Positions 12,434 to 23,002 of a stretch of DNA of 64,000 nt are shown in pieces. Location of the stretch: contig JAGTRB010000004.1 of the NCBI GenBank assembly GCA_018396865.1, positions 1 to 64,000 on the forward strand, written 5' to 3'. The notes under the pieces are model-generated. The model ran no database searches and was not told the DNA's origin. It saw only the letters and a list, made by a program, of their open reading frames with translations. Position 1 is the stretch's first letter; every line of letters begins with the position of its first letter. The translations under genes and the position numbers were made by a program. The DNA is from Candidatus Bathyarchaeota archaeon. Its GTDB lineage: Archaea; Thermoproteota; Bathyarchaeia; TCS64.

Positions 12434-14233
12434 TTATTTCTTTCTAATCAAGTATAAGTAAATGATGATTAAGACAGCTATTATGATGGCGATTGTGATT
12501 ATGATGTATGATATAGGGACTTCTAACCCAAAAATGTTTATTATTAGCTCGGGAGGAGGTTTAGGGAGGGCTAACGCGATTATGGCCTTCTCAATCCTCG
12601 ATGAGCGGTATCCGGGCTTTGAGACCTCTATTAAGAGTTCCAGCCTTTCCCATGTCTGCTTTAAGACCCCATAAGCGATACCAGAGCTTCCCGTCGATCT
12701 ATCTGTGGAGATTAGCTCTCCTCCTTTTATCTCCCAATTTACAGATGCGTTTTTTATAGGTTGGATCCCGCTTGTGGCAGTTAAAATGACGGTGAAAGTC
12801 TGATTTATCTGAACGGTGGATGGCGCTTGGATACTTAGGTTCATTGGGAGGGCTATTGTGGTTATTGTGGCTGTTGAGGCTTCTAACCCTTGAGTGTGAG
12901 CTATTATTTCCACATCACCAGGAACTAGAGTCGATTTGAGAGGGATCCTAACATAGCTTTCACCTTTACCAATCTTGGTTGTGGATGGTACTTCTACAAC
13001 GAATTTTGAGGAGGAGGCCAAGTACACCTCCAGATCCCATGGTGAAACCATGGGGTTCCCTTCTCTAGACTGTACTTGTAACACCAGTATACCCCTCACC
13101 TCCCCATCTGCAAGAATCAAGGGGGAGGCAGCATAAAGGAAGAGTTTAGAAGGGGTTGGCCCTCTAACCTCGAGCATGGCCGAAGAGGCCTCGAGCCCCT
13201 GAGCAGCCGCAGCTATTATACTCTTCCCAGGTTTAAATCCCGTCATAAGCGTAACAGTCGTATAATGCCCCCCAGGCTCTATAGTAACATATGACTTCTC
13301 CACACTCGCGACATCCAGGTCTGAGGAGGAAAGGTATATTGAGACTGGTTCTTGGGTTATGGTTGGGATTCCCTCCTCATCTAGTAGCTGGATAATGATA
13401 GAGTTATGAAATGAACCCCCTAGAAGTAGCGTTGAGGGACTGAGGCTCAAGGAGAGCTTGGCAGGAGGTCCTCCCAGACGAGTGACCGAGACCTTAGTGT
13501 TTCCGGGTATGAGGCCTTCCGACAGGGCTGTGATGGTTGTACTTCCTACTAAGCCTAAAGTGGAGAAGGAAATACTTCCGTAGTCCTTTCCACTGGGGAT
13601 GGTCAGGGAAGAGGGAATTCTTAAGATGCTAGCATTCGAAGATGCTAATAAAACTTCTATCTTAGAGGTGGCCGTTGTTGGTGCACCCTTAGAATCAACA
13701 ATCTGGACCGTAACCCTCCCAATCATCCCATACTCTGCGGGTATAAAACTTGGTGATGCATACACCCTTAAGGTGTAGGGTGGAGAGATGGAGGCATAGG
13801 GATCGAAGGTCCTTAAGGAAGCTGAACCGGGAATGAAACCAGACGCTGAGGCTGTTATAACTGTCTCGCCGGGCCTTTGGGTGGCTCTGAAATATGCAGT
13901 TTTTAAGTATTCACCTTCAGGTATAACTATTGGAGTCTCAACAAACCCTACATCGAGGTTTGAGGAGGATAGGAAAACCCAAACTTCATGGGGAGCGGGT
14001 AATGGATCACCATTTAGGGTCTGAAGCTGTATGAATATGCAGTCATGCCTACCTCCATCCGCGAGTAGGTAAGAAGGCGAGATGTTAAGGGAGAGCCTTC
14101 CCTCCTCTCGGCTCCCACCTTGAAGACCTGAGGTTAGGATGTGAGGAGGTGGATTAAAGAGTGAGGACGAGATTATGATGAGAAGAAGTAGATGTTTTTT
14201 CAGCGAGATTTTTATGCGAATCCTATGAGGCAT
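12434..14233 (-). CDS. Large membrane-anchored surface protein with Ig-like repeats
   Basis: From the ATG at 14233 the protein is 599 residues. A basic start (MPHRIRIKISLKKH) and a hydrophobic stretch form a signal sequence. Four repeats of about 100 residues follow, each with a PS..(L/I)LADGG-like opening, an internal VxLASSS or FLSSSNLDV strand, and a closing G(K/E)xxIxAxxxGL strand. A fifth Ig-like domain contains NASVNWEIKGG. The C-terminus has a proline linker, one membrane helix (about 22 residues) and LIRKK, so the repeats face outside. The repeats resemble invasin/BIG-type Ig domains. The frame extends to an ATG at 14305, but the signal sequence favours 14233. A role in adhesion or envelope structure is inferred. 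Confidence 0.75.
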   Translation of the reverse strand: MPHRIRIKISLKKHLLLLIIISSSLFNPPPHILTSGLQGGSREEGRLSLNISPSYLLADGGRHDCIFIQLQTLNGDPLPAPHEVWVFLSSSNLDVGFVETPIVIPEGEYLKTAYFRATQRPGETVITASASGFIPGSASLRTFDPYASISPPYTLRVYASPSFIPAEYGMIGRVTVQIVDSKGAPTTATSKIEVLLASSNASILRIPSSLTIPSGKDYGSISFSTLGLVGSTTITALSEGLIPGNTKVSVTRLGGPPAKLSLSLSPSTLLLGGSFHNSIIIQLLDEEGIPTITQEPVSIYLSSSDLDVASVEKSYVTIEPGGHYTTVTLMTGFKPGKSIIAAAAQGLEASSAMLEVRGPTPSKLFLYAASPLILADGEVRGILVLQVQSREGNPMVSPWDLEVYLASSSKFVVEVPSTTKIGKGESYVRIPLKSTLVPGDVEIIAHTQGLEASTATITTIALPMNLSIQAPSTVQINQTFTVILTATSGIQPIKNASVNWEIKGGELISTDRSTGSSGIAYGVLKQTWERLELLIEVSKPGYRSSRIEKAIIALALPKPPPELIINIFGLEVPISYIIITIAIIIAVLIIIYLYLIRKK

Positions 14234-14438
14234 AGCTGAATCCACTTCATGGCAAGCATACGACATACTTATAAAGGAGTATCTCATCCTATTCCTCCAC
14301 TCCATTAAATTTGAGATTTATGTTTAAAGCTTTCTTTACGATTCTAATAATATCTATAGGCCTCATAAACATGTTTCCATTCCAGGCTAAACTTATTTCC
14401 CTGTGAATAGACATCTTTTATAGGAGCGGTTCGGACAT

Positions 14439-15269
14439 TCAGTGGCCTCCCTTTATAAAGGGATAAAAGATCCAGAGGAGTAAGAGGACAGCTGAGAGGG
14501 CAAGTCCTATTGAGGTCTTCAAAAACATGAGGGGGATCCCCAAGTACGAGATCTTAAAGGCATATATGCCTATCACCCCTTCAGCTGGTAGGCTCCAAGG
14601 ATCCATGGAAGGGAGATTGTCCCCCTTTGTCTTAAAGTAGAGTCGACCATCCTCCACCCTTACATCAACGACTCTATGGATCACCGGAGAGGGAGTGTAA
14701 CGGTTGTAGGGCGAAGGGACATCGAATATTATGATATCCCCAACTTTTAGACTGGCCGGATTCACACCTACGACTATGACTATATCTCCCATGTTTAATG
14801 TCGGGGACATGCTGTTCGAAGGAATAACAAACAGTGGCATAAAGCTTCCAAGAGTAAAGGCCAACAAAAGATAAGCCTCAAGAGCAGATAGAAGTGGGAT
14901 CCCCACCTTAAGAGACCTCAAAATGATCATTTTCCACAGATTCTGAATGAGTGGCCTTCCATGCACTGAGCATTGAGCATCGGCCAGATGGCCTGCTCTA
15001 TTCATCAATATTTCTTCATCCCCTTCATCAATTGGAAGCCTTAAATCCTCCCCTCTATATCGGCCCACGCTCCTCTCATCTTTAAGGAGGCTATCCAGTC
15101 CAAGGTAGAGGAGGCCTCCTATTGTGGCTCCCATTAAGCAAACATATGGGAACAATCCCTGGAAGGATATGTTGCTCCTTGAAATCACCAAAGCTAGGAG
15201 GGATGATAAGCTTAAAGCCGAAGCCATACATACGGCTCTTAGCACCATTGATAGTCTCAAATGTTTCAA
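14439..15269 (-). CDS. Signal peptidase I, ER/archaeal type (S26B)
   Basis: This 276-residue membrane protein has the Ser-His catalytic pair of ER-type signal peptidases: Ser153 in VIPSNSMSPTL and His198 in SPVIHRV, followed by KTKGDN and the closing VIGIYAF box. Two N-terminal helices (about residues 8-30 and 40-60), one helix before the catalytic serine (about 123-145) and a C-terminal helix surround the outside-facing domain. The N-terminal extension of about 120 residues is longer than in typical archaeal signal peptidases. A GGAGG in the mRNA sits 9 bases before a TTG at 15260, which may be the real start. It follows a small secreted-protein gene on the same strand, an arrangement like the SipW-substrate pairs of bacteria. 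Confidence 0.88.
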   Translation of the reverse strand: MKHLRLSMVLRAVCMASALSLSSLLALVISRSNISFQGLFPYVCLMGATIGGLLYLGLDSLLKDERSVGRYRGEDLRLPIDEGDEEILMNRAGHLADAQCSVHGRPLIQNLWKMIILRSLKVGIPLLSALEAYLLLAFTLGSFMPLFVIPSNSMSPTLNMGDIVIVVGVNPASLKVGDIIIFDVPSPYNRYTPSPVIHRVVDVRVEDGRLYFKTKGDNLPSMDPWSLPAEGVIGIYAFKISYLGIPLMFLKTSIGLALSAVLLLLWIFYPFIKGGH

Positions 15270-15279
15270 CCTCCACTAA

Positions 15280-15289
15280 AAAAAGGGGG
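15280..15289 (-). terminator. T7 run between secreted protein and signal peptidase genes
   Basis: On the transcribed strand the stop of the secreted-protein gene is followed within 10 bases by a C run and seven T residues. This could end part of the transcripts before the signal peptidase gene and raise the ratio of secreted protein to peptidase. Confidence 0.35.
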
Positions 15290-15293
15290 GCTA

Positions 15294-15821
15294 TCAGGAG
15301 GGTTCCACGGCCTTGGCTGGCTCGACTGAACAATACAGGGTTATGCCCACTGTTCCGGTCCTGTAGGCGTATCCGTAGAACTCGAGATCAATGGTCCAAC
15401 TTGAGCCCGTGGCTATATTTGTTGTATCCAGCAGGATTTCAGGGTTAGTTAAGGTTAGATATCCAGTTATATCGCTCGGTCCATCGACCGTTACCTTTAT
15501 TGTTAGAAATGAGAGATAGTTTCGTACCTCTGGAGCGTTTAGTAGAATGACCCTCACATATCTCTCCACGCCACTCAAATTAGGATTATGTTCTATCTTG
15601 AAAACATCGTTAGCTGTCTTTGTGAACCAGCCAAATGTAGGTATGGGTTGGCTTATAGTAACATCGCTCTTAGTTATAGTCACCATATCCTCAACTTTTA
15701 AAGAGGTGATGTTTACCGTGCTTGTGTACTGTGTTGCCCAAGCAGCCGATATCCCTATTAAGGCTAACGCCATTATAGCCAGCGCAACAGCCTTCTCCTT
15801 GAAGTCTATCTTCTCATCCAT
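15294..15821 (-). CDS. Small secreted beta-rich protein next to signal peptidase
   Basis: The 175-residue protein starts MDEKIDFKEK, then has a hydrophobic signal segment (about residues 11-29) and an Ala-x-Ala-like cleavage region (SAAWATQ). The rest is soluble, Thr/Ser/Val-rich and predicted beta, ending with TLYCSVEP. There is no second membrane helix and only one cysteine. Size, signal layout and the neighbouring signal peptidase recall TasA/camelysin-type fibre proteins made with SipW, and TasA-like pilins are known in some archaea. I cannot show homology by eye, so the fibre-subunit idea is a hypothesis. Its AT-rich upstream region suggests its own promoter. Confidence 0.65.
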   Translation of the reverse strand: MDEKIDFKEKAVALAIMALALIGISAAWATQYTSTVNITSLKVEDMVTITKSDVTISQPIPTFGWFTKTANDVFKIEHNPNLSGVERYVRVILLNAPEVRNYLSFLTIKVTVDGPSDITGYLTLTNPEILLDTTNIATGSSWTIDLEFYGYAYRTGTVGITLYCSVEPAKAVEPS

Positions 15822-16001: not shown

Positions 16002-16694
16002 CTATGTTTCGCTATACCATTCTATCCTCTTCGTCTTATATCCCAAGGTCAATATCAAGATTACTAGGATTAGGAATCCCGTCGTGTACCATATGACATC
16101 GGGCCTCAGCATTTCGACTAGGCGTCCGATGACCAGCTCAAACCTGAAGGAGACGGTCTGGCCGTATGTTACACCGAAGGCGACTAGGAGGAACAGCCTT
16201 CCAACCCTGTTCACATACCTGTATGGCCCTGTTGGGGTAGTGGTGAATATGAAGTAGGCGGCTGAGGTTATGGTTCCAACAATCATAACGATGTTCTCCA
16301 AGCTGTTCCACCTAAGAAGTGTTGCCTGTATCTGCTGGACGAAGTCGGCCATCACCGTCGTCCTCATGGCCAGCCCCATCCCAACCCCTATAGATAAGAC
16401 GATGGGGTAGCGGGAGAGCCACATCCATCCACTTTTAAGTCTAGAAAGCAGCATTAGGGATAGGATTATCGGTATAACATAGATGACTTCTCCTCCCTGG
16501 ACCTTTGTGACAGCATTCCTGTATATATAGTCCCAGTTTGTGGCGAAGAGATACCCTGCAAGGATTCCGAGGTATAGGTTCTCCGTCGCTTTCGAGATGG
16601 GATTGTCTCCAATTAGGGTTGTGTAGGCTCCTATCGAGACTAGGGAGCCGACTATCAGGCCTAGGTAGGCTGGGTCCATCAATTTATCTCTCAC
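16002..16694 (-). CDS. Polytopic membrane protein, last gene of a four-gene operon
   Basis: This 230-residue protein has about six or seven hydrophobic segments (around residues 10-25, 38-50, 68-83, 97-112, 133-150, 163-180, 203-222) and short loops. I do not recognise a named family. A GTG at 16694 overlaps the upstream gene by 11 bases; an ATG at 16679 is the alternative. Overlap and co-orientation place it in one transcript with the three genes above it. It has no ATPase, peptidase or transporter signature that I can see. Polar residues within membrane segments are few, which argues against an ion-coupled transporter but does not exclude it. Confidence 0.65.
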   Translation of the reverse strand: MRDKLMDPAYLGLIVGSLVSIGAYTTLIGDNPISKATENLYLGILAGYLFATNWDYIYRNAVTKVQGGEVIYVIPIILSLMLLSRLKSGWMWLSRYPIVLSIGVGMGLAMRTTVMADFVQQIQATLLRWNSLENIVMIVGTITSAAYFIFTTTPTGPYRYVNRVGRLFLLVAFGVTYGQTVSFRFELVIGRLVEMLRPDVIWYTTGFLILVILILTLGYKTKRIEWYSET

Positions 16695-17523
16695 CCCTCA
16701 TCCTCAGGATTAGGTACAACACGTTCCCAATGATCACTAGAGTGAGCCATAATAGGCCGCCCAGGTTTGTGGCCATGGCCTGTCCCAGGGCTGGGCCGGG
16801 CCTCTTTAGGAGGTACTCGTACTCCGCTGATCCTCTCACCCCTCCGAAGAGGCCCTTAAGCTGACCCGCGCTTATGTATGGGCTGTAGTTTGGGACCTCG
16901 TTAGTGGTACATGAGCCGGACATGGGGATGCCGAAGGGGACGGCTATCTGCCTTATCCCGTATGGGATGCTCCCCTCCGAGCCACCCCACCAGAGGACTG
17001 CTGAGAATGCCCTCGCATCGTTGATATCCTTCATTAGGGGGATCTCATCTATCGGGGTTCCGAAATAGTCCTTCTTCACCACGCTCCTTATATTGTTGGC
17101 TAGGGCTCCTACACCAGACTCTCCGCCGGGGATGTATCCCAGGTTCACCCACTCAATCCCATTCCGGGCCTGGACTCCCGGAGGAAGCTTGGATATTACG
17201 GAATCAATCGCCTTCTGGGTCCAGATCTGCTGCTCCGCGCCTATGCTGAAGAAGACTATCTTGACCCCCTTTGTGAACATGTGGTATATCTGTGCCTCCA
17301 TCCCAGGCCCGGTCTGTGGGTAAGTTGCAGCGGTATTGCCTCCTTCAAATAGTACGACGGACCCTGGCGGTATAGACTCTGCGAACTCGAAGGCCATCTT
17401 CGAGTAGTCTTGGATTGCCATCGGTAGGATTATCGGGTTAAGTATGGGATAGGCAAGGGCGATAAACATTGCGAGGAAGATCACCCTCTGGTCTAAAGCC
17501 AAAAGCTTCTTTAGGGTACTCAC
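16684..17523 (-). CDS. Membrane-anchored protein with large soluble domain, operon gene 3
   Basis: The 279-residue protein has an N-terminal hydrophobic helix (about 13-35), a soluble domain of about 210 residues and a C-terminal helix (about 253-275) followed by RMRGER. The soluble part has alternating strands and helices (SVVLFEGGNTAATYP, KGVKIVFFSIGAEQQ, IEWVNLGYIPGGESG, AVLWWGGSEGSIPYGIRQIAVPFGIP) suggesting a Rossmann-like or sugar-binding fold. One cysteine occurs, at the GSCTTN motif. It starts with GTG at 17523 behind a strong GGAGGTGAT ribosome site just after the upstream stop. I do not recognise the family. Topology implies the domain and both termini lie on defined sides of the membrane, but which side is unresolved. 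Confidence 0.7.
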   Translation of the reverse strand: MSTLKKLLALDQRVIFLAMFIALAYPILNPIILPMAIQDYSKMAFEFAESIPPGSVVLFEGGNTAATYPQTGPGMEAQIYHMFTKGVKIVFFSIGAEQQIWTQKAIDSVISKLPPGVQARNGIEWVNLGYIPGGESGVGALANNIRSVVKKDYFGTPIDEIPLMKDINDARAFSAVLWWGGSEGSIPYGIRQIAVPFGIPMSGSCTTNEVPNYSPYISAGQLKGLFGGVRGSAEYEYLLKRPGPALGQAMATNLGGLLWLTLVIIGNVLYLILRMRGER

Positions 17524-17527
17524 CTAA

Positions 17528-18172
17528 TCACCTCCTCTCCTCCCTAATACCAAGGTGCTCCCTCTGCCTCCCTACCAGTATCCTCACCCCAAGTCCAACG
17601 ATACCGAGAGAAGTCCCTATTATCATTCCTCTGAATCCCGCCGAGCTGGGGAAAGACCTCAACCACTCCCCGATTGGGACAACGGGAGGGAGGATGGCAG
17701 CGCCTACTGGTATGAGCATCATAAGCACGATGAATGCGGTGACTAAGAGCACCGTGGCGTCGAAGTTCCTAGCCCTGAAGACCCTATAAGCAGCGGAGGT
17801 GATATAAAAAGCTGTTAGAGAATATAATGCAACACCGATGGGAGCCGTCATGTTATTATAGATCCACCGGAATGTGAAATCTCTGACGCTTATTATCCCA
17901 AGGGCGGCAGTTATAGCTAATGAGATCAAGTATATAAAGCTGTAATACCAGTCTTCGCCTCTAGTAGATATCCTTTTAAGATGGCTTAGGGTTAGTAGTA
18001 CGACTCCAAGCATTATGGCTGAGGCTGTTACTATTGGAACAAAAGATCTAAGATTTACGTTTAAATCTGTGATAGGCTTTGGAACGGAAAAGAAGAACTC
18101 AACCAACATCAATATTATGAATATAGATTGAAGGAATATCGGAATCTGCACTTTATAAAGTCTCTCAGACAT
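17528..18172 (-). CDS. Polytopic membrane protein, operon gene 2
   Basis: This 214-residue protein has about six hydrophobic helices (near residues 11-30, 46-63, 78-98, 110-127, 141-165, 185-200) and a conserved-looking C-terminal block: VFRARNFDATVLLVTAF, then IGEWLRSFPSSAGFRGMIIG and GVRILVGRQREHLG. From memory, similar C-terminal blocks occur in uncharacterised membrane proteins of anaerobic bacteria that sit beside DUF6754-like genes. The ATG at 18172 follows a GAGGTGAT ribosome site and lies 11 bases after the stop of gene 1. It may form a membrane complex with the other three products; this is inference from the operon. Confidence 0.65.
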   Translation of the reverse strand: MSERLYKVQIPIFLQSIFIILMLVEFFFSVPKPITDLNVNLRSFVPIVTASAIMLGVVLLTLSHLKRISTRGEDWYYSFIYLISLAITAALGIISVRDFTFRWIYNNMTAPIGVALYSLTAFYITSAAYRVFRARNFDATVLLVTAFIVLMMLIPVGAAILPPVVPIGEWLRSFPSSAGFRGMIIGTSLGIVGLGVRILVGRQREHLGIREERR

Positions 18173-18183
18173 TCATATCACCT

Positions 18184-18963
18184 CTAGATCTTAAAAATAG
18201 TTGTTATATCTATTCCAAGTGATATTAGCACCGATCCTATTAGGATTAGTATTATAGCTAGGTATTTGCCAATGTCTTGTCCCGCTAGAGAGGAAGATTG
18301 AATCGGGTCTTGAGATACGTAGGCTCCAAGAGCGTATAGTTCCTCACCTATTATGCTATAGTCGCATACGGCTACTAGGAAGGGGATGTTGTGGGTTGTA
18401 TCCGTTCCACCCAATGAGACTGCTCCTACTCTGGCAGCTTGCTCTGTGAAGATCACGGCCTTATGATACCAGCTCCCCAGGAAGAAGGCTCCACCTATCC
18501 TTTCACTCCACATATGATTTAGTATATACATCCTGTCAGCTCCATCAGTTAAGAACTTCACCGTTTCCAATGGATTATAATCCTCTGCCTTATCCTCGGC
18601 CTTATAGGCCTCCTCCACGATCTCGCTTGCTATGGTATATGCTAGCCCCTGGGTTACGGGCACAAAGAACTTGGCTCCAAGTCTGGCCGCCCTCCTTGCG
18701 GTGTAGGAGAGGATCTGGAAGGCTGCGACGGTGGGGGCGAGGACGCTTGGGGTGGTCATATCTGTGTTGTCCATGAGATACCATGCTGGACGCCCCATCT
18801 CCACACACCTTCCTAGGATCTCGTCGATGACGTCGACCGCTGGCAGACGCCTTAGGTTAGGAAGCTTTCCGGCGAGGCTCCTCCTCATGAAGAGGAGAAT
18901 CGAGGCGGAGACGATGAGCATCGAGACCAACCCTAGAGCTCTTCCGGCTATTATCATAGCCAT
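18184..18963 (-). CDS. Membrane-anchored protein resembling DUF6754, operon gene 1
   Basis: From the ATG at 18963 the protein has 259 residues: an N-terminal helix (about 3-24), a soluble domain, and a C-terminal helix (about 232-252). The domain opens with LPAVDVIDEILGRCVEMGRPAWYL, followed by an ARRAARLGAKFFVPVTQ segment, a charged helix with KAEDKAEDYNP, and GTDTTHNIPFLVAVCDYSIIGEELYA. This layout resembles DUF6754 proteins of bacteria and archaea (recollection, not tested). The start is decided by GGAGG six bases ahead (18970-18974) and by the TATA box at 18999-19008, which predicts transcription near 18977; the upstream in-frame GTG at 18990 would lie outside the message. Confidence 0.72.
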   Translation of the reverse strand: MAMIIAGRALGLVSMLIVSASILLFMRRSLAGKLPNLRRLPAVDVIDEILGRCVEMGRPAWYLMDNTDMTTPSVLAPTVAAFQILSYTARRAARLGAKFFVPVTQGLAYTIASEIVEEAYKAEDKAEDYNPLETVKFLTDGADRMYILNHMWSERIGGAFFLGSWYHKAVIFTEQAARVGAVSLGGTDTTHNIPFLVAVCDYSIIGEELYALGAYVSQDPIQSSSLAGQDIGKYLAIILILIGSVLISLGIDITTIFKI

Positions 18964-18998
18964 TATTCGCCTCCAAAAAAATGAAACCACTTTTTAGG

Positions 18999-19008
18999 TA
19001 TATATAAT
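18999..19008 (-). promoter_or_regulatory. TATA box of the four-gene membrane operon
   Basis: On the minus strand the sequence reads ATTATATATA. Initiation about 26 bases downstream (near 18977) gives a short leader that contains the GGAGG ribosome site of the ATG at 18963. Confidence 0.65.
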
Positions 19009-19040
19009 TTAGGGTCAACTTATTGAAATTTATGAAAAGA

Positions 19041-19049
19041 ATTAAAAAT
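19041..19049 (+). promoter_or_regulatory. TATA-like box of the M20 peptidase gene
   Basis: ATTAAAAAT is centred about 27 bases before the ATG at 19072, which predicts a leaderless message. It is only about 35 bases from the divergent promoter of the membrane operon, so the two could interfere or share control. Confidence 0.45.
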
Positions 19050-19071
19050 ATGTTGAAGACTGCTTACTGAG

Positions 19072-20382
19072 ATGTCAAAACAGGCTTTAAAGGATGAGGT
19101 TCTCGAAGCGATAGATGGCTTAGCATCAGAGATAGTCAAGATAGGGGATGCCATATGGAGATGCCCTGAGCTTGGATTCAAGGAGTTCAAGACCTCTAGG
19201 CTTGTCGAGTCGAAATATGAGGAGTATGGATGGCCATACGAGAGGTGCATATCCATAACGGGCTCAAAGGCATATATTGGAAAGAGTGAAGGAGGGCCTA
19301 TTGTAGGGATTATTGGGGAGTTGGATGCTGTTAGATGCCCTGATCATCCTGAGTGTGACCCCATAACCGGTGCTGTTCACGCCTGCGGCCACCATGCCCA
19401 GATAGCCAGCATGCTCGGAGCCGGAATGGGCCTATACGAATGCGGGGCTCTGACAAGGCTGGAGGGGAATGTTGCCATGTTGGCGGTTCCGGCGGAGGAG
19501 TTTCTAGAGATAGAGTATAGGAACACTCTCAGAGAGAAGGGCGAGATAGCCTTCTTCGGTGGTAAGCAGGAGTTCATACGCCTCGGGGCCCTAGATGACA
19601 TTGACATCTCTCTGGGGACACATTCCATATCCGATCCCGAGTTCAAGGGTAAGCTCGGTGTGGGGGGCTCAAATAACGGCTTCATTGGGAAGCTCGTCAG
19701 GTATAAGGGGCTTGAAGCTCATGCGGGAGCAGAGCCACACAGGGGCGTGAATGCTTTGAACGCGGCTCTCCTCGGCCTCATGGGAATCCACGCCCAGAGG
19801 GAGACCTTCAGGGATGAGGACTCGATAAGGGTTCACCCAATCATAACCAAGGGTGGGGAGATAGTGAACAACGTCCCCGCAGATGTCAGGATAGAGGCAT
19901 ATGTGAGGGGAAGAACCGTCGAAGCTATAATGGATGCGAATATGAAGGTCAATAGAGCCCTTAAGGCGGGGGCCTCCGCAGTTGGGGCAACCGTCGAGAT
20001 CAGTGACATACCGGGTTACATGCCCTACACCCAAGAGCCGAGCCTCGTGGAGCTGATGAAGAAGAACGGAGAACTCGTGGTCGGAGAAGGGTGTGTGGAG
20101 GCGAGGGGGCACAGCACGGGTTCCACAGACCTGGGAGATGTCTCCTGTGTGATGCCCACAGCCTCGCTGGGTATGGGAGGCGTAGAGGGAGCCGGCCACA
20201 CCAGGAGCTTCAAGATAGTCGATAAGGAGCTATTATATGTTATCCCAGCGAAGGTCCTAGCACTGACATGCATAGATCTCCTATATGACGGTGCGAGAGA
20301 GGCGAAGAGGATAATAGATTCCTTTAAACCCAAAATACCTAAAAACAACTACACACAGTTCATGATTCAACTATTCCGCTAG
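19072..20382 (+). CDS. M20 family amidohydrolase/peptidase
   Basis: The 436-residue protein has the M20 layout. It contains GIIGELDAV for the metal-binding aspartate region, an ACGHHAQIASMLGA histidine motif (about residues 103-116), PAEEF for the catalytic glutamates, a dimerisation insert, and a closing EGAGHTRSF histidine segment. Close relatives cleave aminobenzoyl-glutamate, N-acyl amino acids or small peptides; the GHHAQ and VPAEEF forms suggest the AbgB-like or aminoacylase side of M20D. It is probably cytoplasmic because there is no signal peptide. TATA spacing predicts a leaderless start at the ATG. It lies just upstream of an M14 peptidase gene, forming a peptide-use neighbourhood. 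Confidence 0.88.
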   Translation: MSKQALKDEVLEAIDGLASEIVKIGDAIWRCPELGFKEFKTSRLVESKYEEYGWPYERCISITGSKAYIGKSEGGPIVGIIGELDAVRCPDHPECDPITGAVHACGHHAQIASMLGAGMGLYECGALTRLEGNVAMLAVPAEEFLEIEYRNTLREKGEIAFFGGKQEFIRLGALDDIDISLGTHSISDPEFKGKLGVGGSNNGFIGKLVRYKGLEAHAGAEPHRGVNALNAALLGLMGIHAQRETFRDEDSIRVHPIITKGGEIVNNVPADVRIEAYVRGRTVEAIMDANMKVNRALKAGASAVGATVEISDIPGYMPYTQEPSLVELMKKNGELVVGEGCVEARGHSTGSTDLGDVSCVMPTASLGMGGVEGAGHTRSFKIVDKELLYVIPAKVLALTCIDLLYDGAREAKRIIDSFKPKIPKNNYTQFMIQLFR

Positions 20383-20452: not shown

Positions 20453-23002
20453 ATGTTAGGTAAGGTAACTCCTCCCGAGGAGTTTTTCGGTTTCAGGCTA
20501 GGTAGTGACGGAAAGATAGCCCGTTGGGACAGGATTGTCGAATATTTCAGGCTGCTTGAGAGGCAGAGCGAAGAGATAAAGGTGATCGATATGGGGCCCT
20601 CGACGGAGGGCAACCCATTCCTGCTTGTTATAATCTCTTCTGCTAACAACCTCATGAACCTGGAGAGGCTGAGGCAGATAAACCTCAGGCTCAGCGATCC
20701 CAGAGGGGTCTCAGAAGAGGAGGCTGAGAGGCTGATCAAGGAGGGCAGGGCTGTCATCTGCCAGTCCATGAGCCTCCACGCCACGGAGATAGGTGGAACC
20801 CAGATGGCTCCCGAGCTCGCCTATGACCTCCTAACCAGGGATGACGAGGAGACGAGGAGGATCAAAGAGAATGTGATCTTCTTAATGGTTCCATGCTTCA
20901 ATCCTGACGGCCAGATCATGGTCACTGACTGGTATAATAAGTGGCTTGGAACCGAGTATGAGGGGTGCGACCTCCCATGGCTCTACCACAAGTATGTGGG
21001 CCACGACAACAACCGGGACGCCTTCATGACCAACATGATCGAGTCCAGACATATGGCCCAGATACTATTCAGGGATTGGATCCCCCAGGCATATCAGGAC
21101 CATCACCATATGGGCAGCTATGGAGCGAGGCTCTATGTGGCCCCATACTGTGAGCCGATTCACCCCTATGCGGACCCCTTGATCTGGAGGGAGCACAGCT
21201 GGTTTGGAGCCCATATGGCCCTGAGGCTTGAGGAGGCTGGGAAAATGGGTATAATAAATGGGGCCCAGTTCCTGGGATGGGGACATCTGGGGTTCCATTG
21301 GATCGGGAATTATCATAACATAGCCAGCATGCTCACAGAGTCGGCGAGCGCCAAGCTGGCCACACCTCTCTACATACACCCAACTCAGCTGAGGGGGGAT
21401 GGCCGAGGCCCCATAAGGGGATTCCCCCACTATAAGCCGCAGACGAACTTTCCGAACCCATGGCCCGGGGGCTGGTGGAGGCTCCGAGATATAGTTGAGC
21501 AGCAGAAGATAGCGTCATGGGCCCTGCTGGACCTCGCTGCTAGGCATAGAGAGACCGTGCTCAGGAACGCCTACCTGAAGGCGAAGAGGCAGGTGGAGAG
21601 AGGGATGAAGGGGAGACCCTATGCCTATATCGTACCAGCAGACCAGCACGATCCCCTCACGGCTGAGAAGCTCATAGAGAAGCTGCTGATCCAGGGCTTG
21701 GAGATCAAGAGAGCAAAAGAGGACTTCATCGCCGAAGGCAGAGTTTATGGAAGGGGCTCCTACATCCTCACCCTGGACCAGCCGAAGATGGGTTTGATCA
21801 GAACCCTCCTAGGTAGAACCCTATACCCGGATGACGCCTGGACCAGGGAGGCCGACGGCTCCCCAAGCAGGCCTCAGGACACGGCCTCGGACACCATGGC
21901 GGAGTATATGGGCGTAAGGGTGGATGAGATCCAAGAGCCCTTCAAGGCGGAGGCTGAAATTGTTAAGGAGCATAAGAGGCCGAGGGGTAGGATCCTAGGA
22001 GGCTCGGGCTTTGGATATGTATTTGACCCTAGGCTGAACGACAGCTTCAAGGCCTTAAACCTCCTCATAGAGCGGGGATTGAAGGTTGAGAGGTTTGAAG
22101 AGGCATTATGTCTTGATGGGCTCAGGCTTCCCTGTGGAGCTTTCATGGTAGAGGGCGGGAAATTGAACGCTCTGAAGGAGGCCGCAGATGCTACCGGAGT
22201 GGACTTCATAGCCTTAAGGGATGAGCCAAGGGGGAGGAGGCGTGAGGTTAGGAGGCTAAGAGTTGGTCTCTACCAGAGGTACTGGGGAGGAAACATGGAT
22301 GAAGGCTGGACAAGGTGGCTGCTCGAACAGTTCTGTTTCCCCTACAAGAGCCTTAAGGACGAGGAGGTTAAGAAAGGGCGGCTAAACGATGTTTATGACG
22401 CCATTATAATCCCGGATGATGCCACACCCTTCATAACGGGGATTGGGGTGGAGGAGTGGATGAGGGAGCATAGACCCGACTGGCCCCAGCCCTTCTATCC
22501 ACCAGAGTACAGAGGCGGAATAGGCGAGGAGGGGGTCAAAGCCATTAATGACTTTGTGGAGAACGGAGGGACTCTAATAACCCTTGGAGGAGCATGCGAC
22601 TTCGCCATAGAAAAGCTCGGATTAAATGTTAGGAATCCACTGAAGGGGTTGAAGCCAAAGGAGTTCTTCTGTCCAGGGTCAACTCTGAGGGCGTGTGTCG
22701 ACAATTCTCATCCGCTGGGCTACGGGATGCCAGAAAAAACGCTAGTATTCTTCTGGAATAATCCAGCCTTCGAGATAATCCCCTCAAAGATGAATGAGTT
22801 CTTCGAGACGGTGGTCCAGTATCCTGAAAGGGACATCCTACAGAGCGGATGGCTGATAGGTGAAGAGAGGATATCAAAGAGGATCGGGATGCTTGTGGCG
22901 AGGAAGGGTAAGGGTAGAGTAGTCCTCATAGGCTTCAGGCCTCAGCACAGATGCCAGACACACGGAACCTTCAAACTACTCTTCAACGCCCTGATATCTT
23001 AA
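20453..23002 (+). CDS. M14 family zinc carboxypeptidase-like protein
   Basis: At 849 residues it is a large M14-type enzyme. Zinc ligands are visible as LHATE (His109, Glu112) and the QDHHHMG histidines (217-219); NPDGQ (150-154) and HDNNRD (184-189) carry the substrate-binding Asn-Arg. The catalytic glutamate should lie near LTESASAKLATP. Residues after about 600 form a separate alpha/beta domain (RVGLYQRYWGG, YDAIIIPDD, FVENGGTLITLGG, GRVVLIGFRPQ) like the glutamine-amidotransferase/ThuA fold seen in long M14 homologues. No signal peptide is evident, so it may act inside the cell on imported peptides. It follows the M20 gene in the same direction but has its own promoter. Confidence 0.85.
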   Translation: MLGKVTPPEEFFGFRLGSDGKIARWDRIVEYFRLLERQSEEIKVIDMGPSTEGNPFLLVIISSANNLMNLERLRQINLRLSDPRGVSEEEAERLIKEGRAVICQSMSLHATEIGGTQMAPELAYDLLTRDDEETRRIKENVIFLMVPCFNPDGQIMVTDWYNKWLGTEYEGCDLPWLYHKYVGHDNNRDAFMTNMIESRHMAQILFRDWIPQAYQDHHHMGSYGARLYVAPYCEPIHPYADPLIWREHSWFGAHMALRLEEAGKMGIINGAQFLGWGHLGFHWIGNYHNIASMLTESASAKLATPLYIHPTQLRGDGRGPIRGFPHYKPQTNFPNPWPGGWWRLRDIVEQQKIASWALLDLAARHRETVLRNAYLKAKRQVERGMKGRPYAYIVPADQHDPLTAEKLIEKLLIQGLEIKRAKEDFIAEGRVYGRGSYILTLDQPKMGLIRTLLGRTLYPDDAWTREADGSPSRPQDTASDTMAEYMGVRVDEIQEPFKAEAEIVKEHKRPRGRILGGSGFGYVFDPRLNDSFKALNLLIERGLKVERFEEALCLDGLRLPCGAFMVEGGKLNALKEAADATGVDFIALRDEPRGRRREVRRLRVGLYQRYWGGNMDEGWTRWLLEQFCFPYKSLKDEEVKKGRLNDVYDAIIIPDDATPFITGIGVEEWMREHRPDWPQPFYPPEYRGGIGEEGVKAINDFVENGGTLITLGGACDFAIEKLGLNVRNPLKGLKPKEFFCPGSTLRACVDNSHPLGYGMPEKTLVFFWNNPAFEIIPSKMNEFFETVVQYPERDILQSGWLIGEERISKRIGMLVARKGKGRVVLIGFRPQHRCQTHGTFKLLFNALIS

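What the first reader, a model, noticed from the sequence alone, without database searches (positions are those of the whole stretch)
16002..18963. Four-gene membrane operon of unknown function
Four tightly packed genes (spacing 11, 4 and -11 bases) encode two proteins with a single soluble domain held between terminal membrane helices and two polytopic membrane proteins. The unit has a clear TATA box and strong ribosome sites. None carries a recognised catalytic or transport motif. Gene 1 looks like DUF6754, and gene 2's C-terminal block (GEWLRSFPSSAGFRGMIIG) recalls proteins next to DUF6754 in anaerobic bacteria; both are recollections. If the same set recurs across bacteria and archaea, it is a conserved but unexplained membrane complex.
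Basis: partly seen in the sequence, partly recalled or inferred. Interest (0 to 1): 0.72.

Follow-up and report, generated by a model that had tools for sequence, protein, structure and literature searches.

The report
Unrecognised four-part membrane complex, fifteen copies
This is one of fifteen copies, in a single archaeal genome, of an undescribed four-protein membrane complex that also occurs in many bacterial phyla and sits next to enzymes that break down peptides and amino acids, so it is most likely a new family of substrate-specific transporters.

Summary
The four minus-strand genes (A 18184-18963, B 17528-18172, C 16684-17523, D 16002-16694) form an operon. A is DUF6754 (PF20539, E 2.7e-57). 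B, C and D match no Pfam family, nor do their homologues. The genome holds 15 copies, all in the order A-B-C-D, and the same block recurs in archaea and many bacterial phyla. Within one genome the subunits co-diverge, and they are under strong purifying selection, so this is a dedicated complex.

The A domain is cytoplasmic and the C domain extracytoplasmic. Both are confidently modelled alpha/beta domains without a close solved relative. B and D are six- to seven-helix membrane proteins.

Copy number rose independently in the archaeal lineage and in Fermentithermobacillaceae. In both, copies sit beside peptidases, amidohydrolases, creatininase or aminotransferases. A conserved cytosolic pair, a MutL-family protein (PF13941) plus a barrel-sandwich protein, is linked to the complex.

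Best explanation: a new family of substrate-specific transporters for peptide, amide or amino-acid catabolism (about 0.5); direction and energy source are not shown. Rivals: sensor, membrane enzyme or protein-handling complex. I found no literature on it.

The parts
18184..18963 (-). Gene A: DUF6754 (PF20539); TM helix, cytoplasmic six-strand alpha/beta domain, TM helix
   Evidence: Pfam E 2.7e-57; AlphaFold2 pLDDT 94.2, pTM 0.90; topology
17528..18172 (-). Gene B: six-helix membrane protein, N-in, no Pfam family
   Evidence: No consistent family in 80 members; no PDB relative; topology
16684..17523 (-). Gene C: TM helix, extracytoplasmic six-strand alpha/beta domain, TM helix; no Pfam family
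   Evidence: No family in 84 members; AlphaFold2 pLDDT 95.2, pTM 0.91; N-in in 74 of 77 two-TM members
16002..16694 (-). Gene D: six- or seven-helix membrane protein, probably N-out; start may be ATG at 16679
   Evidence: No consistent family in 86 members; topology; start codons read
18964..19071 (.). 108-bp divergent promoter region between gene A and the M20 amidohydrolase gene; TATA element for A at 18999-19007 (minus strand), GGAGG at 18970-18974
   Evidence: Direct reading
19072..20382 (+). Divergent partner gene: M20 amidohydrolase (TIGR01891); adjacency conserved in a second species of the genus
   Evidence: orthologue and synteny in L133
20453..23002 (+). M14 zinc carboxypeptidase downstream of the M20 gene, probably part of the same catabolic locus
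   Evidence: Pfam E 1.6e-13

Best explanation
Genes A-D encode one copy of a dedicated four-subunit membrane complex that most likely works as a substrate-specific transporter. Each paralogous copy would serve a different peptide, amide, acyl-amino acid or amino-acid-derived compound handled by the enzyme gene beside it; for this copy, the substrates or products of the M20 amidohydrolase and M14 carboxypeptidase. Proposed working: C carries an extracytoplasmic alpha/beta domain that contacts the solute; B and D form the membrane pathway; A carries a strongly conserved cytoplasmic alpha/beta domain that couples to the cytosol. A MutL-family protein of the ASKHA ATPase superfamily (superfamily placement from general knowledge) and a barrel-sandwich protein would be a shared cytosolic partner module that energises or remodels several membrane units. 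SHOWN: the invariant operon, 15 copies, the phyletic spread, co-divergence, purifying selection, topology of A and C (by charge bias and signal peptides), the linkage to hydrolases and to MutL plus barrel. INFERRED: that it transports anything, the direction, which subunit binds what, and that MutL supplies energy.
For: 15 whole A-B-C-D cassettes in one 1.83-Mb genome at 25-41% identity to the window's A. In 10 of 15 a nearby gene is a peptidase, amidohydrolase, creatininase or aminotransferase; the others sit by POR, CODH/ACS or MutL. In Fermentithermobacillus carboniphilus Bu02, 13 cassettes sit by the same enzyme classes plus threonine-degradation genes and IclR, RpiR, MarR or sigma-54 regulators; that organism is described as a peptide and amino-acid fermenter (PMC10215811). 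All 22 archaeal cassettes split from all 82 bacterial ones with support 0.997, so the expansions are independent. Copies keep their own partner gene between species of the genus. The genome has no AA_permease_2 match and only seven BPD_transp_1 matches. M20 genes lie within 2 kb of a cassette in 5 of 21 cases, p = 0.006. MutL is in 30 of 30 sampled DUF6754 genomes.
Against: No transporter family, fold or motif is recognised in any subunit (folds). No acidic residue is conserved inside a predicted membrane helix of B or D, so ion coupling has no visible signature. MutL and barrel are next to only 3 of 15 copies in this genome. Nitrospira keeps a single copy with no hydrolase beside it. The hydrolase test used a family chosen after looking, and a peptide degrader is rich in such genes anyway.
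Confidence: 0.5

Rival explanations
1. A membrane-anchored sensor: the outer C domain detects a solute and B/D pass the state to the inner A domain, which signals to MutL plus barrel or to the neighbouring enzyme.
For: Soluble domains on both faces of the membrane; regulators beside several Bu02 copies; the outer domain is less conserved than the inner one (mean column identity 34% and 46%).
Against: No signalling domain in any subunit; two polytopic subunits are more than a relay needs; 15 sensors in 1.8 Mb, most without an adjacent regulator.
Confidence: 0.12
2. A membrane-bound enzyme or energy-conserving module that couples a catabolic reaction to an ion gradient or to the cofactor chemistry of MutL.
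For: Copies beside POR and CODH/ACS; MutL plus barrel with weak Biotin_lipoyl and RnfC_N similarity; A has invariant or nearly invariant polar residues such as R52, E55, C200 and D201.
Against: No cofactor-binding motif or metal ligand set recognised in A-D; the many different partner enzymes share no single reaction; no conserved membrane-embedded carboxylate.
Confidence: 0.15
3. A protein-handling or envelope-maintenance complex: A-D hold or unfold membrane or secreted proteins, and MutL acts as a chaperone.
For: Bacterial A carries a signal peptide and an Fn3-like outer stretch (domain name by eye); MutL belongs to an ATPase superfamily that includes Hsp70 (general knowledge); peptidases are neighbours.
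Against: The neighbouring hydrolases are mostly small-substrate exopeptidases and amidohydrolases (M19, M20, creatininase); amplification to 13-15 copies beside different enzymes is unusual for quality control.
Confidence: 0.1

Closest known systems
DUF6754 (Pfam PF20539)
   Same: Gene A is an unambiguous member.
   Different: The Pfam entry is a domain of unknown function; the four-gene unit, its copy-number expansions and its partners are not described in any paper found.
MutL protein family (Pfam PF13941)
   Same: Co-occurs with DUF6754 in 30 of 30 sampled genomes and lies two genes upstream of A in 23 loci; all three in this genome lie by cassettes.
   Different: Named after the glutamate-mutase operon; here the linkage is to a membrane complex. 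It is a partner, not a subunit homologue.
Multi-subunit solute importers with an outer binding domain (ABC, TRAP)
   Same: Works-like comparison only: an outer alpha/beta domain plus polytopic subunits, and paralogous copies beside different catabolic genes.
   Different: No sequence or fold match; no P-loop ATPase; a second soluble domain is fixed on the inner side.
ECF-type transporters
   Same: Works-like comparison only: many specific membrane units and few copies of a possibly shared cytosolic module (15 cassettes to 3 MutL).
   Different: The shared module would be an ASKHA protein plus a barrel protein, and its energising role is untested.

Membership tests
DUF6754 (PF20539) | Match above the curated cut-off over the whole domain | tested here: met
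   194.3 bits against 27; positions 10-253 of 257
A-B-C-D cassette family (defined here) | All four genes adjacent in the fixed order A-B-C-D | tested here: met
   15 of 15 in this genome; 82 of 95 clusters exactly ABCD overall, most others tandem arrays or cut at contig ends
Multi-gene unit MutL - barrel - A-B-C-D (the layout in Nitrospira) | MutL and barrel-sandwich genes adjacent to the cassette | tested here: not met
   Not beside the window copy; present beside three other copies of the genome. Treated as an optional neighbour
ABC importer | P-loop ABC ATPase and a transmembrane domain of a known ABC family | tested here: not met
   No such Pfam or NCBIfam match in A-D
TRAP or other secondary transporter families in Pfam | Match of the polytopic subunits to a transporter model | tested here: not met
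   Only stray matches in one or two of 80-86 members
Transporter (functional sense) | Measured movement of a solute across the membrane | not testable with these tools
   Needs reconstitution or uptake assays
Periplasmic binding protein fold for C | Structural match to a solved binding protein | tested here: not met
   Best PDB hits are generic Rossmann-type enzymes with TM-scores of about 0.2-0.3

The most novel reading that the evidence does not exclude
A new class of primary transporter: an antiparallel pseudo-symmetric heterotetramer in which A and C share one fold with opposite orientation (TM, helix, six strand-helix units, TM; domain inside in A, outside in C), B and D likewise face opposite ways, and an ASKHA-type protein (MutL) with its barrel partner, shared among many membrane units, supplies the energy.
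Probability: 0.15. Interest if true: 0.92.

Novelty: categorically new. Interest (0 to 1): 0.74.

Why it matters
A four-gene membrane complex that recurs in archaea and many bacterial phyla, and reaches 13-15 copies in two unrelated lineages rich in peptide-degrading genes, has no described function. If it is a transporter family, it would help explain how such uncultured fermenters take up or exchange organic nitrogen compounds, although this genome has few recognised importers, and it would mean that transporter annotation of such genomes is incomplete. It also gives the widespread 'MutL' family a likely partner other than B12 mutases, testable in culturable bacteria such as Nitrospira or Symbiobacterium.

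Tried and rejected
Known enzyme or transporter: no match in Pfam, NCBIfam or PDB sequences for B, C, D, and only DUF6754 for A. Sequence homology of A with C: hhalign P = 0.0024 but probability 12%, so only suggestive; the equal order of secondary-structure elements is what any two Rossmann-like domains could show. Homology of B with D: none. SIS-domain similarity of A: TM-scores of 0.30-0.46, rejected as evidence. Mobile element or prophage: no plasmid or phage match, and orthologous copies are syntenic. Sigma-70 promoter scan: not appropriate for an archaeon. Literature: no paper with DUF6754, PF20539 or PF13941; searches on MutL gave nothing relevant.

Full report
WHAT IS THERE. The window is archaeal: the nearest matches to gene A are Methanomethylicota and Bathyarchaeota records, and the window carries an archaeal-type signal peptidase. 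Four minus-strand genes lie between 16002 and 18963. Intergenic distances are 11, 4 and -11 bases if D starts at GTG 16694; ATG 16679, preceded by GGGGTGA, is at least as likely. A TATA element at 18999-19007 and Shine-Dalgarno sequences before A, B and C are plain in the sequence. The operon shares a 108-bp divergent promoter region with an M20 amidohydrolase gene (19072-20382), which is followed by an M14 carboxypeptidase gene (20453-23002).

THE GENES ARE REAL. Orthologues in a second species of the genus (L133) have A at 95% identity and dN/dS of 0.025 (A), 0.042 (B), 0.060 (C) and 0.080 (D) (synonymous divergence is high, so the ratios are approximate).

FIFTEEN COPIES. DUF6754 gives 15 hits in the genome. 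All 15 are followed by B, C and D in that order. Against the window copy, A shows 25-41% identity, B 21-34%, C 25-36% and D 22-34%. Within the genome, pairwise divergence is correlated for all six subunit pairs (r 0.35-0.67, Mantel p about 0.02 or lower): the subunits diverge together, as expected of a dedicated complex. No species tree can confound this, because all copies are in one genome.

DISTRIBUTION. The best 80 come from Bathyarchaeota, Methanomethylicota, Bacillota, Nitrospira, Methylomirabilota, Planctomycetota, Armatimonadota, Zixibacteria, WOR-3, Cloacimonadota, Eisenbacteria, Acidobacteria and others. Of 95 clusters (15 own copies included), 82 read exactly A-B-C-D and most others are tandem arrays or cut at contig ends. 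Median gaps are 3.5, 3 and -1 bases. Copy number varies: 7 to 14 DUF6754 hits in four Fermentithermobacillaceae and one in each of two Nitrospira. Within the archaeal phylum it is patchy, 3 of 151 sampled genomes including this one, but common in the family. Sampling caveat: the 80 loci are the best matches to one peptide pattern, and most records are metagenome-assembled; Bu02 is a complete genome.

TOPOLOGY AND STRUCTURE. Bacterial A carries a signal peptide and an outer Fn3-like stretch before TM1, and two-TM versions are N-out in 28 of 31 cases. The DUF6754 domain is therefore cytoplasmic. C is N-in in 74 of 77 two-TM cases, so its domain is extracytoplasmic. B has six helices, N-in; D has six or seven, probably N-out. 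These are charge-bias predictions. AlphaFold2 models are confident: A pLDDT 94.2, C 95.2. Both read TM, helix, six strand-helix units, TM. PDB searches give only generic Rossmann-like hits with low TM-scores. Whether A and C share one fold in opposite orientation is an attractive inference, not a demonstrated fact.

NEIGHBOURS. In this genome 10 of 15 copies sit near M14, M19, M20, M42 or M81 peptidases, amidohydrolases, creatininase or aminotransferases; one is by POR, one by CODH/ACS, three by MutL. Five of 21 M20-model matches lie within 2 kb of a cassette (p 0.006, family chosen after inspection). Same-genus genomes keep the same partner beside the same copy. In Fermentithermobacillus carboniphilus Bu02 (described as fermenting peptides and amino acids, PMC10215811) 13 cassettes, one with A truncated, sit by M20 peptidases, Amidohydro_3, creatininase, S9, a beta-lactamase-type enzyme, threonine-degradation genes and catabolic-type regulators (the threonine assignment rests on the pairing of an aminotransferase-fold and a zinc dehydrogenase gene). 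A tree of concatenated A-D separates all 22 archaeal from all 82 bacterial cassettes with support 0.997. The expansions are therefore independent and the shared enzyme classes convergent. This is the strongest argument for a substrate-specific role.

THE CYTOSOLIC PARTNERS. Upstream of A, in the same direction, a barrel-sandwich protein of about 377 residues stands first in 31 loci and MutL (PF13941) second in 23. The barrel protein is 40-53% identical between archaea and bacteria and ends in a KOW-like segment (weak Spt5 and uL24 matches). MutL is in 30 of 30 sampled DUF6754 genomes. Among 41 relatives both are present in 25, only one in 6, neither in 10 (Fisher p 5e-5, without correction for relatedness). 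All three MutL genes of this genome lie by cassettes. Some Bacillota MutL genes are shorter and score higher, probably true mutase partners, so presence alone overstates the link there. A shared energising or remodelling module is inferred.

MECHANISM. Best reading: a substrate-specific transporter, with C as the outer contact, B and D as pathway and A as inner coupling domain. Transport itself, direction and energy source are not shown. The genome has no AA_permease_2 match and seven BPD_transp_1 matches, which leaves room for another uptake system but does not prove one. Bu02 does have several peptide ABC importers, so the complex is not simply their replacement.

VERDICT. A real, conserved, undescribed membrane complex with unusual amplification. 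Only A has a family entry, of unknown function. I rate the system categorically new because no known kind accounts for its parts, and the functional assignment as moderately likely.

Noticed in passing
window 12434-15821, minus strand: A unit of a small secreted protein (15294-15821), an archaeal/SipW-type signal peptidase (14439-15269, TIGR02228) and a 623-residue Ig-like surface protein (12434-14305): probably a surface fibre locus, separate from the finding; its three genes are also syntenic in L133.
   Followed up: partly
L121, L123, L125 (same-genus genome G001): Several cassettes look decayed in this relative: split frames in A, B or D, and in L125 the B, C and D genes and the neighbouring M19 dipeptidase gene are missing together.
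   Followed up: no
L014:10670-11044 and relatives: A small (about 120 residues) conserved protein with a motif like 'ESIKPLTYIGGQ' recurs beside MutL or the cassettes in about 20 loci and has no Pfam family.
   Followed up: partly
L053:13004-14398 (Nitrospira): A Memo-family protein (PF01875) follows gene D directly in most Nitrospira loci.
   Followed up: no
G041 (Bu02), G042, G051: Two size classes of MutL (PF13941), about 490 residues and more than 600; the copies found next to DUF6754 cassettes are of the long class.
   Followed up: partly
L045:3030-14094 (Zixibacteria): Three A-B-C-D cassettes in tandem in one locus.
   Followed up: no
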